From: Baekduia alba
GTDB taxonomy: Bacteria > Actinomycetota > Thermoleophilia > Solirubrobacterales > Solirubrobacteraceae
Length of the DNA: 64,000 nucleotides
Assembly: GCF_028416635.1 (NCBI RefSeq)
Contig: NZ_CP114013.1
Location: 1,240,001 to 1,304,000 of the forward strand
Reading direction: 5' to 3'
In this document: positions 56,417-62,148 of the stretch, piece after piece
Position numbering within the stretch: the first letter of the stretch is position 1
Layout of the letters: each line of letters begins with the position of its first letter
The notes under the pieces: generated by a model
What the model was told of the DNA's origin: nothing
The model's database searches: none
The model's input: the letters and a program-made list of their open reading frames with translations, nothing else
Translations under genes and position numbers: made by a program

Positions 56417-57568
56417 GTGAACCAGTGGATCGCCGATAGTTCAGCTTCGATCGCGGAGCGCGCGCTGCCGCAGCTGGAGGCGCTGGTCGGCGTCTCGACG
56501 CCCTCCGGAGACGTCAAGGGCGCCAACGAGGCCGCGGCGATCGCCGCCGCGCTCCTGCCCGATGGCGCGACCGTCGAGCACCTGCCGTGCTCGTCGCCCG
56601 ACCACGCGCCGGACTTCTGCGCCCGCGTCACCGGCACGGGCACCGGCCGGATCCTGCTCCTGGGTCACCTCGACACGGTCGTCGCGCACGCCGAGCACCG
56701 GCCGCTGGAGCTCGACCCCGACGACCCGGACAGGGTGCACGGGTCGGGCACGGTCGACATGAAGGGCGGCGACGTCCTCGCGCTCGGCGTCCTGGGCGCG
56801 CTGGCCCCCCGGCCGGAGCTGTTTGCCGAGATCGCGCTGCTGCTCGTCGTCGACGAGGAGTGGCGAGTCGGCCCGTTCGCCCACGTCGAGCGCTTCGCCG
56901 GCTTCGACGCGTGCCTGTGCTTCGAGGCGGGCGAGCTCGACGCCGACGGCAACGACGCGGTCGTCGTCAAGCGCAAGGCGGCCGGGACGGTCGAGGTCCT
57001 CGCGCACGGGCGCAACGCGCACTCCGGCTCGGCGCCCGACGCCGGGATCAACGCGCTGCTCGCGCTCGCCACCGCTGCCCACGCGATCGCCGCCCAACAC
57101 GCGCCCGACGGCCCCGACCGCCTCACCGCGGTCCCGACCGTCGTGCGCAGCGGCGACGCCTTCAACGTGGTCCCGGCCAACGGGCGCCTGATCGCCGACG
57201 TCCGCGCCGACCGCCTCGACGCCTTCCAGCGCGTCCTCGACGCGGTGCCGAACCGGCTCGACTCGGGAGCCACGCTCAGCGCCGGCCTGGCCCGCGAGTG
57301 GCCCGGGATGGACGCCCGCGAGCCGACCAAGCCGCTGCTGGCGCGCGCGTCGGACCTCCTCGGCCGCCCGATTGTCGCCGCGCAGCGCGGCGGCGCGTCG
57401 GACGCGAGCCACTTCGCCGCGACGATCCCGCTGACCGTCGACGGCCTCGGCCCGCGCGGCGGCGCGGCACATAACCCCGGCGAGTTCGTGCGGCGCTCCT
57501 CGCTGCAGCCGCGGGCCGCGGTCGCGCTCGCCTTGGCGCTGGCGGCCTTGGAGCTCAGCGCCCGCTAA
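56417..57568 (+). CDS. M20-family metallopeptidase (carboxypeptidase G2-like)
   Basis: 383 residues. The zinc-binding residues of M20 are visible: His in LLGHLDTVV (~75), Asp in GTVDMKGGDVLAL (~112), the catalytic Glu pair in VVDEEWRVGPF (~148), and the final His in AAHNPGEFV (~350). A dimerisation domain is inserted at ~180-290. Relatives cleave C-terminal Glu from folate or peptides, deacylate N-acyl amino acids, or hydrolyse dipeptides. No signal peptide, so cytosolic. GTG at 56417 is chosen near GGA; the divergent spacer to the bcp gene is only 22 nt, so promoters must overlap coding sequence. Confidence 0.87.
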   Translation: MNQWIADSSASIAERALPQLEALVGVSTPSGDVKGANEAAAIAAALLPDGATVEHLPCSSPDHAPDFCARVTGTGTGRILLLGHLDTVVAHAEHRPLELDPDDPDRVHGSGTVDMKGGDVLALGVLGALAPRPELFAEIALLLVVDEEWRVGPFAHVERFAGFDACLCFEAGELDADGNDAVVVKRKAAGTVEVLAHGRNAHSGSAPDAGINALLALATAAHAIAAQHAPDGPDRLTAVPTVVRSGDAFNVVPANGRLIADVRADRLDAFQRVLDAVPNRLDSGATLSAGLAREWPGMDAREPTKPLLARASDLLGRPIVAAQRGGASDASHFAATIPLTVDGLGPRGGAAHNPGEFVRRSSLQPRAAVALALALAALELSAR

Positions 57569-57644
57569 ACCGAACATGTGGCCTAGGTAAGCGTGCGGAC
57601 GTCGTTATGACGACATCCCGCCGCCGCCTTCGCTACGCTTCCGC

Positions 57645-57797
57645 GGTCGTTTCACCAAGCCGAATCCCCGGCGAGCCATCGTCGGGGAGCGGGGGACCCA
57701 CTGGCCTGAGCGTGCTCAGGTCCGGGGCGAATCATCGCTTTCCTGCGACGTAGCGCCGCTCTCATGGCGCGAGCCCGACAGCTAACCCCGTAGGCGC
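57645..57797 (+). ncRNA. Cyclic di-AMP riboswitch (ydaO/yuaA type)
   Basis: The spacer before the NlpC/P60 gene carries the conserved ydaO-motif blocks in order: AGCCGAATCC (57658-57667), GGGGGACCCA (57691-57700), GGGGCGAATCA (57724-57734), and GAGCCCGACAGCTAACCCCG with GTAGGC at ~57771-57796. These riboswitches bind two c-di-AMP molecules and usually turn expression off; in actinobacteria they commonly precede cell-wall hydrolases and osmolyte genes. The element ends only a few bases before the first ATG, so it may control translation or a terminator overlapping the start. Boundaries are by eye. Confidence 0.88.
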
Positions 57798-57801
57798 CGC
57801 C

Positions 57802-58929
57802 ATGAGAGGGGTTCCACCGTTGTCGCCGTCGCCGTTCCGATCGTCCGCCCTAGGCGCAGTCCTTGCCTTCGTGGCGGCCGCTGTCCTCTTCGTCCCCGCG
57901 CTCGCGCAGGCGGACACGACGACGGTCAGCGCGAGCACTACGGCCTCGTCGGCGGCCGCCGCCAAGAAGGTCGGCACCAAGCCCCTCCACTCCGGTGACC
58001 GGGGCGCGCGCGTCAAGGCGCTGCAGACGCTCCTCTCCCAGGCCGGCTTCAAGACCAGCACCGACGGCCAGTTCGGCGCGACGACGGTCAAGGTCGTGCG
58101 CAAGTTCCAGCGCGCCGCGAACCTCAAGCCGTCCGGCGTCGCCGACGCCCCGACGCTCGCCGCGCTGAAGACCGCGACCGACGGCTCGGCCGCCAAGAAC
58201 ACCGCCGGCGGCTTCGACGTCCGCTCGACCGGGACCGGCAGCTGGCACCTCGGCGACCGCATCCCGCTCCGCAAGGGCATGAGCGGCCACGACGTCAAGA
58301 TCCTCCAGGACTACCTCGAGCGCGCCGGCTTCGACACCTCGGTCGACGGCGAGTTCGGCACCGGCACCGTCAAGAGCGTCAAGCAGTTCGAGACCGACCA
58401 GCAGGTCGCCGTCGACGGCGTCATCGACGCCGCCGACATCGACGTGCTGCGCTCGCTGGTCGACGGCGAGGCCGGCACCGCGCCCGCCACGCCGACCGAG
58501 CCCGCGCAGCTCGCGCCCGGCGACAAGGCGACGGTCGGCGCCGACGGCCTCGCGATCGCGCCCGCCAACGCGCCGGACCCGGTCAAGCAGATCATCGCCG
58601 CGGGCAACGCGATCGCCAAGAAGCCGTACCACTACGGCGGCGGTCACGGGCAGTGGGACGACTCGGGCTACGACTGCTCGGGCTCGGTCTCCTACGCGCT
58701 GCACGCCGCTGGCCTGCTCGACCAGGCGCTGCCGTCGGGCGACTTCACGAGCTGGGGCGAAGCCGGCCCGGGCCAGTGGGTGACCATCTACGCCAACGGC
58801 GGCCACATGTACATGGTCGTGGCCGGCCTGCGCTTCGACACGAGCGGCCGCGCCCAGGACGGCACGCGCTGGCACGCGCCGTCGCGGCCGTCGAGCGGGT
58901 ACACCGTTCGCCACCCCACCGGCCTGTAG
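57802..58929 (+). CDS. Secreted NlpC/P60 cell-wall peptidase with two peptidoglycan-binding domains
   Basis: 375 residues. Signal peptide (~10-38, ending AQA), two PG_binding_1 domains (~62-120: SGDRGARVKALQTLLSQAGF; ~158-218: KGMSGHDVKILQDYLERAGF), a linker, and an NlpC/P60 domain (~250-375) with nucleophile C292 (GYDCSGSVSYAL) and H335 (GGHMYMVVAG). It is expected to cut peptide cross-bridges in the wall during growth or turnover. It sits directly under a c-di-AMP riboswitch. ATG at 57802 touches the riboswitch; TTG at 57820, with GAGAGGGG 8 nt before it, may be the true start and still leaves a full signal peptide. Confidence 0.9.
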   Translation: MRGVPPLSPSPFRSSALGAVLAFVAAAVLFVPALAQADTTTVSASTTASSAAAAKKVGTKPLHSGDRGARVKALQTLLSQAGFKTSTDGQFGATTVKVVRKFQRAANLKPSGVADAPTLAALKTATDGSAAKNTAGGFDVRSTGTGSWHLGDRIPLRKGMSGHDVKILQDYLERAGFDTSVDGEFGTGTVKSVKQFETDQQVAVDGVIDAADIDVLRSLVDGEAGTAPATPTEPAQLAPGDKATVGADGLAIAPANAPDPVKQIIAAGNAIAKKPYHYGGGHGQWDDSGYDCSGSVSYALHAAGLLDQALPSGDFTSWGEAGPGQWVTIYANGGHMYMVVAGLRFDTSGRAQDGTRWHAPSRPSSGYTVRHPTGL

Positions 58930-59023: not shown

Positions 59024-59752
59024 GTGAGCCCCGCCGCCGCGTCGCCCGAGCCTGCCCGTCCCCACCCGCCCGCGACGCCCGACGAGGAGCTGCTCGGGAC
59101 CAAGCGCCGGTCGGTGATCGCGACCCGCACCGAGCAGGAGCGGATCGACCGCATCGACCGCGACCTCGAGGCGGGCTTCGAGGCGCTGCGCAACCTCGGG
59201 CCGGCGGTGACGTTCTTCGGGTCGGCGCGGGTGGCACCCGACCACCGCCTCTACGGGCTCGGCCGCGAGGTCGCCAGGCGCGTCGGCGGCGAGGGCTTCG
59301 CGATCATCACCGGCGGCGGTCCCGGCTTGATGGAGGCCGCCAACCGGGGCGCGCGCGACGCCGGCGTCACGTCGGTCGGCCTGAACATCCAGCTGCCGTT
59401 CGAGCAGGCGCCGAACCCGTACCAGGACATCGCGCTGACCTGCGCGTTCTTCTTCACGCGCAAGATGATGTTCGTGCGCTACGCGACCGCGTTCGTCGTC
59501 CTGCCGGGCGGGTTCGGGACCCTCGACGAGCTGTTCGAGGCGCTCGTCCTGGAGCAGGTCGACAAGATCCGGGACTTCCCCATCATCCTGGTCGGCGAGT
59601 CCTACTGGGGCGGCCTGGTCGACTGGATCCGCGACAAGCTGCTGGCCGAGGGCATGATCGCCGAGCGCGACGCGAGGCTGCTGATGGTCACCGACGACGT
59701 CGACGAGGTCGCGCGCGCGGTGTGCCGGGCGCGCGACGTGCAGGAGGCGTAG
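59024..59752 (+). CDS. LOG-family Rossmann-fold protein (cytokinin-riboside-monophosphate hydrolase type)
   Basis: 242 residues. After a Pro/Ala-rich N-terminus (~1-45) it has the LOG fold: VTFFGSARVAPDHRLYGLG, ITGGGPGLMEAANRGARD, and the signature PGGFGTLDELFEALVLEQ. LOG enzymes split nucleoside monophosphates into base and ribose-phosphate. Proteins of this family were often mislabelled lysine decarboxylases. The motif TRKMMFVRYATAFVVLPGG (in part) is typical of the longer LOG subgroup. Start is GTG; no partner gene is obvious. Cytokinin-like signalling is not implied; nucleotide salvage is as likely. Confidence 0.87.
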   Translation: MSPAAASPEPARPHPPATPDEELLGTKRRSVIATRTEQERIDRIDRDLEAGFEALRNLGPAVTFFGSARVAPDHRLYGLGREVARRVGGEGFAIITGGGPGLMEAANRGARDAGVTSVGLNIQLPFEQAPNPYQDIALTCAFFFTRKMMFVRYATAFVVLPGGFGTLDELFEALVLEQVDKIRDFPIILVGESYWGGLVDWIRDKLLAEGMIAERDARLLMVTDDVDEVARAVCRARDVQEA

Positions 59753-59778
59753 GGCCCGCGACGGCGAAAGCGGGGGCG

Positions 59779-62148
59779 ATGTCCTCCGCCGTCCGCGCGC
59801 TCCTGGTCGGGTCGCTTGCCGCGCTGCTGCTCGCGGCGGCCGGTTCGGGCGTCGCCGCGGCGCGGGTGGCGCTGCTGGCGACCGGGACCAACGACGTCGC
59901 GCTGCTCGACGTCGGCTCGGGCAAGCTCATCCGCCGGCTCGCGCTGCCGGGCCCGACGACGGCGGTGGCGATCGGCCGCGACGGCCGGGTCGGTTTCGCG
60001 GCGGGCGGCGGCGCGGTGCTGGCCCTGGACCTGCGCGCGCCGTCGGTGATCGGGTCGGCCACGGCGCCGGGCGGCGGGACGGCGGACGGCAGCGGCGGGG
60101 CGGCCGCCGCCGTGACCGACGGCATGACCCTCGCCACCCCGACCGTCGGCCCGCGCGCGCTGGGCGGCGATCCGGTCGTCGGGCTCGCCACCTCGCCGGC
60201 CGGTGGCACGGTCTACGCCGCGGCCGGGACCAAGGTGTACGCCTTGGATGCGCGGACGCTCGCCGCCACCGGCTCCGTCGACCTCCACGGCACCGCGCTG
60301 GACTTCGCGGTCTCCGCCGGCGGAACGCTCGCCGCGGCGACCCTGCGCGGGGGCCGCGTCGCGCTGGTCGACCTCGGCGCGCCGCGCCTGCTGCGGCGCG
60401 TCAAGGTCAAGGGCGCCGCCGGTGTCGCGCTCGCCGCAGGCCGCACCTGGGTCTCGACCGCCTCGGGCCGGCTGCGCACGATCGCGCGCGGCGCGGCCAA
60501 GGCGACCAAGGGCATCAAGTTGGGCAAGGGCGTCGCCGGCCGCATCGCGGTCGCCCCCGACGGCGCGCACCTCGCGGTCGGTGCCGGCCCCGGCCGCACC
60601 AGCGCCGCGATCGTCGACCTCGCGCCGCAGGGCGCCCACGTGTTCCGCTCGGCGGCCGGACCCGGCGCGCCGGCCTACGCGCCCGACGGCGGTCGCGTGT
60701 ACCTCGCCGGCGGCGGCGCGCTCTCGCTCGTCAGCACGATCGCCCACCGGCGCACCGGCACGCTGCCGATCGCCGCGACCGCCGTCGCCGTCCAGGCCGG
60801 CCTCGCGCTCAGCCTCGGCGGCGACGGACCCGACGTCCTGCTCGGCACGCGCTCGCAGGACCTCCTGGAGGGGCTCGGCGGCGACGACCGCCTCGACGGC
60901 GGCCGCGAGAACGACATCCTGCACGGCGACGACGGCAACGACGTCCTGCAGGGCGGGCCGTTCGACGACCGCCTCGACGGCGGCGCCGGTGACGACCAGC
61001 TCAGCGGCTCGTCGGGCAACGACGCGATCGCGGGCGGCGACGGCGCCGACACGGCCACGGGCGGCACCGGCAACGACCGCATCCACGGCGGCCCCGGCGA
61101 CGACCACCTCGACGGCGGCGCGGGCGACGACCGCATCTCCGGCGAGGCCGGCAACGACGCCATCGACGGCGGCATCTTCGGCAACGACGCCCGGCTGCTG
61201 GGCGGCGACGGCGACGACACGATCCACGGCGGGCGCGGCTCGGACCGGATCATCGAGGGCAACGCGGGCAACGACAAGCTCTACGGCGAGTCCGGGACCG
61301 AGCACATCCTCGGCGGCGACGGCGACGACCTGATCGACGGCGGCAGCGCGCGCGACCTGCTCGAGGGCAACAACGGCAGCGACACGATCGCCGGCTCCAG
61401 CGGCGACGACCTGGTCGAGGGCGGCGCCGGCGCCGACCTGCTCGACGGCGGCGAGGACGCCGACGAGATGTACGGCGACGACGGCGCGGACACGATCGTC
61501 GGCGGGCCGGGCGCCGACGTCATCGACGCCGGCGACGGCGACGACACGATCCGCGCGGCCGACGCCAGCGGCGACAGCGTCGACTGCGGCGAGGGCAACG
61601 ACACCGTCTACGTCGAGCAGGGCGCGCCGGCGCGCGACCGCCTCGTCGGCTGCGAGTCGGTCGTCCCGATCCCGCCGGAGCTGGCCACCAACACGACGAC
61701 GACCTCGCTCGTCCGCGGCACGAAGGGCGACGACGTCCTGCGCGGCACGCCCGGCCCGGACTCGCTGTTCGGCAAGCAGGGCGACGACCAGCTGTTCGGC
61801 GGCGGGGGCGACGACTACGTCGACGGCGAGTGGGGCGCCGACGAGCTGCACGGCGGCGCCGGCGACGACACGATCGCCGGCCGCTCCGGCGACGACCGCA
61901 TCTTCGGCGAGGACGGCGACGACCAGATCACCGGCGACCGCGGCGCCGACCGCATCTCCGGCGGGGCCGGGAACGACGCGCTGTTCGGCAACCTCGGGCC
62001 CGACGTCCTCGCCGGCGGCTCCGGCGACGACCGCATCAACGTCGTGCGCGGCGAGATCGACAGCGTCCGCTGCGGCTCGGGCCACGACGTCGTCCTGGCC
62101 GACGCGGGCGACCACGTCGCGTCGGACTGCGAAGACGTCCGCCGCTAG
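59779..62148 (+). CDS. Secreted beta-propeller and RTX-repeat calcium-binding protein
   Basis: 789 residues. Signal peptide (~1-27). Residues ~28-345 are short beta repeats of a YVTN/propeller-like domain (LLATGTNDVALLDVGSGKLIRRL, in part; VVGLATSPAGGTVYAAAG; IAVAPDGAHLAVGAG). From ~350 on it is tandem glycine/aspartate nonapeptides of the RTX type (GGxGxDxLx, e.g. GGAGDDQLSG, GGPGDDHLDG), over 25 copies in two blocks separated at ~620-660 by a Thr-rich link and a Cys pair. RTX repeats fold as parallel beta-rolls on binding Ca2+ outside the cell. No catalytic domain is seen; a surface or adhesive role is inferred. Confidence 0.85.
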   Translation: MSSAVRALLVGSLAALLLAAAGSGVAAARVALLATGTNDVALLDVGSGKLIRRLALPGPTTAVAIGRDGRVGFAAGGGAVLALDLRAPSVIGSATAPGGGTADGSGGAAAAVTDGMTLATPTVGPRALGGDPVVGLATSPAGGTVYAAAGTKVYALDARTLAATGSVDLHGTALDFAVSAGGTLAAATLRGGRVALVDLGAPRLLRRVKVKGAAGVALAAGRTWVSTASGRLRTIARGAAKATKGIKLGKGVAGRIAVAPDGAHLAVGAGPGRTSAAIVDLAPQGAHVFRSAAGPGAPAYAPDGGRVYLAGGGALSLVSTIAHRRTGTLPIAATAVAVQAGLALSLGGDGPDVLLGTRSQDLLEGLGGDDRLDGGRENDILHGDDGNDVLQGGPFDDRLDGGAGDDQLSGSSGNDAIAGGDGADTATGGTGNDRIHGGPGDDHLDGGAGDDRISGEAGNDAIDGGIFGNDARLLGGDGDDTIHGGRGSDRIIEGNAGNDKLYGESGTEHILGGDGDDLIDGGSARDLLEGNNGSDTIAGSSGDDLVEGGAGADLLDGGEDADEMYGDDGADTIVGGPGADVIDAGDGDDTIRAADASGDSVDCGEGNDTVYVEQGAPARDRLVGCESVVPIPPELATNTTTTSLVRGTKGDDVLRGTPGPDSLFGKQGDDQLFGGGGDDYVDGEWGADELHGGAGDDTIAGRSGDDRIFGEDGDDQITGDRGADRISGGAGNDALFGNLGPDVLAGGSGDDRINVVRGEIDSVRCGSGHDVVLADAGDHVASDCEDVRR

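What the first reader, a model, noticed from the sequence alone, without database searches (positions are those of the whole stretch)
57645..57822. c-di-AMP riboswitch controlling a two-PGB NlpC/P60 peptidase, possibly by occluding the start
Conserved ydaO blocks are all present. The element ends about 5 nt before the first ATG and 23 nt before a TTG that has a proper GAGAGGGG site. No terminator lies between, so control may be translational, unlike the usual terminator mechanism.
Basis: partly seen in the sequence, partly recalled or inferred. Interest (0 to 1): 0.6.

Follow-up and report, generated by a model that had tools for sequence, protein, structure and literature searches.

The report
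c-di-AMP riboswitch pseudoknot covers ribosome site
A genuine c-di-AMP-sensing RNA switch sits directly in front of a cell-wall enzyme gene, and comparison with more than 130 relatives indicates that the sensor's own pseudoknot covers the ribosome-binding site, so it probably shuts off translation rather than ending transcription as the textbook members do.

Summary
Confirmed. Window 57648-57813 (+) is a full-length c-di-AMP (ydaO/yuaA, RF00379) aptamer: 71.6 bits, gathering score 38, E 1.2e-14. The genome has eight copies and a diadenylate cyclase. In fact the aptamer's conserved pseudoknot strand lies further on, at 57801-57808 (CATGAGAG). It pairs with loop CTCTCATG (57759-57766) and contains both the first ATG (57802) and most of the GAGAGGGG Shine-Dalgarno (SD) site of TTG 57820. 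Orthologs in the same genus keep TTG/GTG, not ATG, as the start. They change both pseudoknot strands together: CTCTCAT/ATGAGAG here, CTCTCTT/AAGAGAG and CTCTATT/AATAGAG elsewhere. Across Solirubrobacterales, the start lies a median 9 nt after the pseudoknot (107 of 118 copies within -3 to +20). The SD overlaps the pseudoknot in 95 of 103, and no copy has a terminator before the start. A sister family in the same class has the gene about 80 nt away behind a terminator. Best reading: translational OFF switch, aptamer pseudoknot = SD blocker. A translational c-di-AMP riboswitch was already reported in C. glutamicum (2023), with a pseudoknot suggested, so this is a new member of a known kind. No ligand response was tested.

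The parts
57648..57813 (+). c-di-AMP (ydaO/yuaA) riboswitch aptamer, RF00379, full length
   Evidence: cmscan 71.6 bits, E 1.2e-14, model 1-134/134
57658..57661 (+). P1 helix, 5' strand (AGCC)
   Evidence: cmscan alignment; position
57793..57796 (+). P1 helix, 3' strand (GGCG)
   Evidence: cmscan alignment; position
57753..57770 (+). Hairpin GCGCCGCTCTCATGGCGC whose loop carries the 5' pseudoknot strand
   Evidence: cmscan alignment; position
57759..57766 (+). Pseudoknot strand 1 (CTCTCATG) in the hairpin loop; acts as anti-SD
   Evidence: 8-9 nt perfect complement of 57801-57808; covaries with the tail across orthologs
57801..57808 (+). Pseudoknot strand 2 (CATGAGAG), overlapping ATG and SD
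   Evidence: equivalent strand is part of the c-di-AMP-bound crystallised RNA (PMC5393176)
57804..57811 (+). Shine-Dalgarno GAGAGGGG for TTG 57820 (spacing 8 nt)
   Evidence: sequence; 16S 3' end GGATCACCTCCTTTCT in the same genome
57802..57804 (+). First in-frame ATG, inside the pseudoknot; not conserved in same-genus orthologs, probably not the start
57820..57822 (+). TTG start codon, conserved in position in same-genus orthologs (GTG in one)
57820..58929 (+). Secreted cell-wall protein, 369 aa: apparent signal peptide, two PG_binding_1 domains, C-terminal NlpC/P60-like domain
58501..58926 (+). NlpC/P60-like catalytic domain (conserved DCSG and GH motifs)
   Evidence: alignment A1; AlphaFold pLDDT 87; Foldseek top hits are P60 domains

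Best explanation
This is a c-di-AMP riboswitch that most likely turns its gene off at translation. When c-di-AMP binds, the aptamer folds and its conserved pseudoknot closes: loop 57759-57766 pairs with tail 57801-57808. That tail is the 5' part of the SD site of TTG 57820, so the 30S subunit cannot load and less of the NlpC/P60-like wall hydrolase is made. With little c-di-AMP, P1 and the pseudoknot open and the site is free. The aptamer is therefore its own expression platform. Shown: the aptamer, the complementarity, its covariation, the position of SD and start, and the absence of a terminator. Inferred: ligand binding by this RNA, ligand-dependent pseudoknot closure, and the OFF direction (from the class).
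For: The Rfam hit is full length. The crystallised c-di-AMP-bound ydaO RNA carries the same core and the same loop:tail pseudoknot, CUCCUUCG/CGAAGGAG (PMC5393176). Same-genus orthologs show compensatory changes. Loop-tail complementarity in the order beats re-paired controls: 13.3 vs 11.34 +/- 0.17, 0 of 300; non-consensus loops 12.4 vs 9.74 +/- 0.24, 0 of 500. Start median +9 nt after the pseudoknot, 107/118 within -3..+20; SD overlap of at least 2 nt in 95/103. A terminator before the start in 0/118, against 8/10 in sister families. A DAC-domain gene is present. The C. glutamicum nlpC switch acts on translation and lacks a terminator (PMC9960051).
Against: No binding, probing or expression data for this RNA. 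The nested-only energy model pairs the window's SD strand with the loop even without ligand (SD-strand unpaired probability 0.003), by a long helix that breaks the aptamer, so a free ON state is not obvious from energetics. Across the order the same model gives a median unpaired probability of 0.42 and no conserved alternative partner. A Streptomyces rpfA switch is reported to terminate transcription although it lacks a canonical terminator (PMC10117811 and PMC9960051).
Confidence: 0.76

Rival explanations
1. c-di-AMP binding ends transcription early, by a Rho-dependent or non-canonical site or polymerase pausing, as reported for Streptomyces rpfA; the SD overlap is secondary.
For: A review states that c-di-AMP causes premature termination at S. 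coelicolor rpfA, which lacks a canonical terminator. A 2025 RNA-seq method reports termination at some ydaO-yuaA loci.
Against: No terminator-like site at 57450-58000 or before the start in any of 118 copies in the order. The start follows the aptamer by about 9 nt. In C. glutamicum, transcript level did not respond to c-di-AMP while protein did.
Confidence: 0.13
2. The pseudoknot is always formed; it only supports aptamer folding, and its tail happens to look like an SD site because both are purine-rich. Control works through P1 or RNA decay.
For: The pseudoknot is also present in terminator-type copies, where it is far from the start. The nested model keeps the window strand paired without ligand.
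Against: The SD overlaps the pseudoknot in 95 of 103 copies with a clear SD, with start spacing as for ordinary SD sites. In terminator-type copies another SD near the gene is used.
Confidence: 0.08
3. Translation starts at ATG 57802, so the start codon itself lies in the pseudoknot.
For: ATG is in frame and gives a 375-aa ORF.
Against: No same-genus ortholog has an ATG there, while TTG or GTG with GAGAGGG or a similar site is kept. The ATG has no SD at a usual distance upstream. It arises from the compensatory change CTCTCTT/AAGAGAG to CTCTCAT/ATGAGAG.
Confidence: 0.07
4. A decayed or non-binding copy of the riboswitch.
For: Two other copies in this genome lack the pseudoknot and score lower.
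Against: The core is intact, the score is well over cut-off, and the pseudoknot is maintained by compensatory change across the genus.
Confidence: 0.03

Closest known systems
Corynebacterium glutamicum nlpC c-di-AMP riboswitch (PMC9960051)
   Same: Same class; actinobacterial; upstream of an NlpC/P60 peptidase gene; no canonical terminator; control reported at translation; authors suggested a CTCC:GGAG pseudoknot with the RBS.
   Different: Here the blocking helix is identified as the aptamer's own conserved pseudoknot by covariation over many loci. No experiment has been done here. Different class of Actinomycetota (Thermoleophilia).
Bacillus subtilis ydaO (kimA) riboswitch
   Same: Same aptamer family, RF00379.
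   Different: The prototype ends transcription at a terminator and controls a potassium importer (as cited); here there is no terminator and the gene is a wall hydrolase.
Streptomyces rpfA and other wall-hydrolase ydaO riboswitches
   Same: Same regulon type (secreted wall hydrolases). Probable Streptomyces loci here (identified by copy number and genome size) have the pseudoknot strand directly against the SD.
   Different: Reported as transcription termination.
SAM-II, SAM/SAH and preQ1 riboswitches with the SD in an aptamer pseudoknot
   Same: Works like them: the ligand-stabilised pseudoknot takes up the ribosome site, with no separate expression platform (general knowledge; pseudoknot structure of SAM/SAH in PMC7367207).
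   Different: Unrelated aptamers and ligands; an analogy, not membership.

Membership tests
c-di-AMP riboswitch (RF00379) | Covariance-model score over the curated cut-off | tested here: met
   71.6 bits vs 38, full-length 1-134
c-di-AMP riboswitch (RF00379) | Conserved core (GGGGGACC, GGGGCGAATC, CGAGCCCG-CAGCTAACC-CG) as in the crystallised aptamer | tested here: met
   compared with the 4QLM sequence given in PMC5393176
c-di-AMP riboswitch (RF00379) | Loop:tail pseudoknot | tested here: met
   8-9 bp perfect; compensatory changes between orthologs; covariation against shuffles
c-di-AMP riboswitch (RF00379) | Binds c-di-AMP | not testable with these tools
   only indirect: a DAC-domain gene in the same genome
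Translational c-di-AMP riboswitch (C. glutamicum nlpC type) | No terminator between aptamer and gene; RBS complementary to an aptamer segment | tested here: met
Translational c-di-AMP riboswitch (C. glutamicum nlpC type) | Protein but not transcript falls with c-di-AMP | not testable with these tools
   needs a reporter experiment
NlpC/P60 peptidase (PF00877) | Pfam match over gathering score | tested here: not met
   21.0 bits vs 23 for the isolated domain; full-length protein not reported at E 0.001
NlpC/P60 peptidase (PF00877) | P60 fold with catalytic Cys and His | tested here: met
   DCSG Cys and GH His invariant in 10 relatives; model pLDDT 87; best PDB fold matches are P60 domains, E 5.9e-4, TM 0.57

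The most novel reading that the evidence does not exclude
The ydaO aptamer comes in two builds sorted by the gene controlled, across phyla. In one the pseudoknot strand is itself the SD site and the gene is a wall hydrolase. In the other the gene lies beyond a terminator or a longer leader and is mostly a transporter. If so, the pseudoknot alone is the switch for a large share of all c-di-AMP riboswitches, and c-di-AMP silences wall hydrolases by translation as a general rule.
Probability: 0.55. Interest if true: 0.62.

Novelty: new member of a known kind. Interest (0 to 1): 0.46.

Why it matters
How terminator-less c-di-AMP riboswitches of Actinomycetota work is unsettled: termination is claimed for Streptomyces and translation for Corynebacterium. 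This locus and its relatives give a concrete helix, exact bases and natural compensatory variants, so the question can be answered with a few mutants. They also tie a second messenger for osmotic and cell-wall stress to direct translational silencing of a whole set of secreted wall hydrolases in a little-studied order.

Tried and rejected
ATG 57802 as the start: rejected on ortholog comparison. Intrinsic terminator: none found. Nested RNA folding to show a free ON state: inconclusive, because the model cannot hold the pseudoknot, pairs the same two strands another way in the window, and shows no conserved alternative partner. A first start-caller based on ORF length chose wrong frames in GC-rich loci and was replaced by a codon-position GC rule; numbers moved only slightly. 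A MAFFT alignment of the 3' half did not put the tails in register, so covariation was measured by re-pairing shuffles instead. The key primary papers (Nelson 2013, Block 2010, and the crystal papers of Gao/Serganov and Jones/Ferre-D'Amare) were not held, so whether they already remark on SD overlap could not be checked.

Full report
WHAT IS THERE. The window holds one RNA-family match over its curated cut-off: RF00379, the c-di-AMP riboswitch, at 57648-57813 on the + strand, 71.6 bits against a cut-off of 38, all 134 model positions. The Rfam model and the c-di-AMP-bound crystal RNA include a further 3' strand that pairs with a hairpin loop as a pseudoknot (sequence and mention of the pseudoknot in PMC5393176). 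In the window that strand is CATGAGAG, 57801-57808, and the loop strand is CTCTCATG, 57759-57766. So the aptamer runs through the first ATG (57802) and into GAGAGGGG (57804-57811), the SD site 8 nt before TTG 57820.

WHICH START. In the four same-genus orthologs examined, the leader reads SD-spacer-TTG (GTG in one) at nearly the same place, and none has an ATG in the pseudoknot. The start is therefore most likely TTG 57820, giving a 369-aa protein with an apparent signal peptide. The ATG looks like a by-product of a compensatory change. The pseudoknot strands are CTCTCAT/ATGAGAG in the window, CTCTCTT/AAGAGAG in three relatives and CTCTATT/AATAGAG in a fourth. Pairing the window's loop with the other species' tails shortens its helix from 9 bp to 5-6 bp, and doing the same for the fourth relative shortens it from 9 bp to 4-5 bp.

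COMPARATIVE EVIDENCE. The genome has eight copies. In a sample of the class, 69 of 199 genomes have the riboswitch, often 5-11 copies per genome in the same order. I took 155 loci. In the own order (Solirubrobacterales, judged from named records with matching contig lengths), 118 of 131 analysable copies have a pseudoknot of at least 6 bp. The start codon lies a median 9 nt after it, 107 of 118 within -3 to +20. Of 103 copies with a clear SD, it overlaps the pseudoknot strand by 2 nt or more in 95. Loop and tail covary: mean helix score 13.3, against 11.34 +/- 0.17 when tails are re-dealt (0 of 300 reach it), and 12.4 against 9.74 +/- 0.24 for loops that differ from the CTCTTTC consensus (0 of 500). 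Among 29 ortholog leaders of the window's own gene it is 14.09 against 12.66 +/- 0.28, 0 of 2000. These shuffles do not remove relatedness; the same-genus double changes are the cleaner evidence.

CONTRAST. No own-order copy has a terminator-like site before the start (0 of 118). In families f8/f9 of the same class 8 of 10 do, with the gene about 80 nt away; among the non-order copies as a whole the SD overlap drops to 2 of 10. Thus the same aptamer and pseudoknot are used with a terminator platform in one lineage and fused to the SD in another.

OUTSIDE THE CLASS. Among named genomes from one pattern scan, fused leaders occur in Paenibacillus, Selenomonadaceae, Streptomyces, Arthrobacter, Frankia and others, while Bacillus mojavensis and other Paenibacillus loci have terminators. 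Proteins behind 23 fused leaders fall in wall families: NlpC/P60, CAP, Rpf-type transglycosylase, 3D, CHAP, LysM, PG-binding. Proteins behind 34 non-fused leaders are mostly amino-acid permeases and TrkH-type cation transporters, with no wall hydrolase among the 25 families shown. Caveat: of the 34, 20 are all distinct terminator-type loci, and 14 were picked by eye from 37 leaders with neither feature because their reading frame looked reliable. That part is not an unbiased sample. Presumed Streptomyces loci have the pseudoknot strand GGAAGG directly against the SD AAAGGAG.

GENE. The protein has two PG_binding_1 domains. Its C-terminal domain is a divergent NlpC/P60: below the Pfam cut-off (21.0 vs 23 bits), but with invariant DCSG and GH motifs and a predicted fold whose best PDB matches are P60 domains. 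Over the order, the genes behind the switch are largely wall enzymes: of 131, PG_binding_1 in 42, M23 peptidase 29, DPBB lytic transglycosylase 14, Rpf-like transglycosylase 10, and a GGxH..DC(S/T)G motif in 51. The genome encodes a DAC-domain diadenylate cyclase.

MECHANISM. Shown: aptamer, pseudoknot complementarity and covariation, SD and start inside or next to it, no terminator. Established for the class: c-di-AMP binding and OFF control (PMC9960051 and PMC10117811). Inferred: ligand closes this pseudoknot and blocks 30S loading. Weak point: nested-only folding pairs the window's SD strand without ligand, so basal expression and dynamic range cannot be judged here.

NOVELTY. A translational c-di-AMP riboswitch in front of nlpC was reported in C. 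glutamicum in 2023, with a pseudoknot offered as a possibility (PMC9960051). The window element is a new member of that kind. What is added is the identification of the blocking helix as the aptamer's own pseudoknot, from covariation and start position over more than 100 loci, and the hint that platform type follows gene function. I could not read the original ydaO and crystal papers, so prior mention of SD overlap cannot be excluded.

Noticed in passing
L007 (G000:C1:2869901-2870033) and L008 (G000:C1:2912543-2912670): Two of the eight copies in the same genome lack the loop:tail pseudoknot. One has an ATG 11 nt after P1 with no SD, the other a separate SD further on. 13 of 131 copies in the order have a pseudoknot under 6 bp; either decaying copies or another platform.
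   Followed up: partly
L009, L010, L016, L017, L024, L025, L027, L030, L032 (family f9): A sister family in the same class keeps the pseudoknot but has an intrinsic terminator and the gene about 80 nt away, so the expression platform has switched within one class.
   Followed up: partly
window 57759-57766 and loops of relatives: The pseudoknot loop (CTCTTTC, CTCCTTT) resembles the 16S rRNA anti-SD sequence, as expected if it competes with the ribosome for the same bases.
   Followed up: no
L164, L176, L227, L251, L259, L260, L272 and others: c-di-AMP riboswitch-like leaders before amino-acid permease-type transporters in MAGs labelled Acidobacteria, Opitutia and Phycisphaerae, among other contigs.
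   Followed up: no
window 59722-62148: ORF of 808 aa with many GGxGxDxL-type repeats (RTX-like) downstream of a LOG-family (lysine decarboxylase-like) gene at 59024-59752.
   Followed up: no
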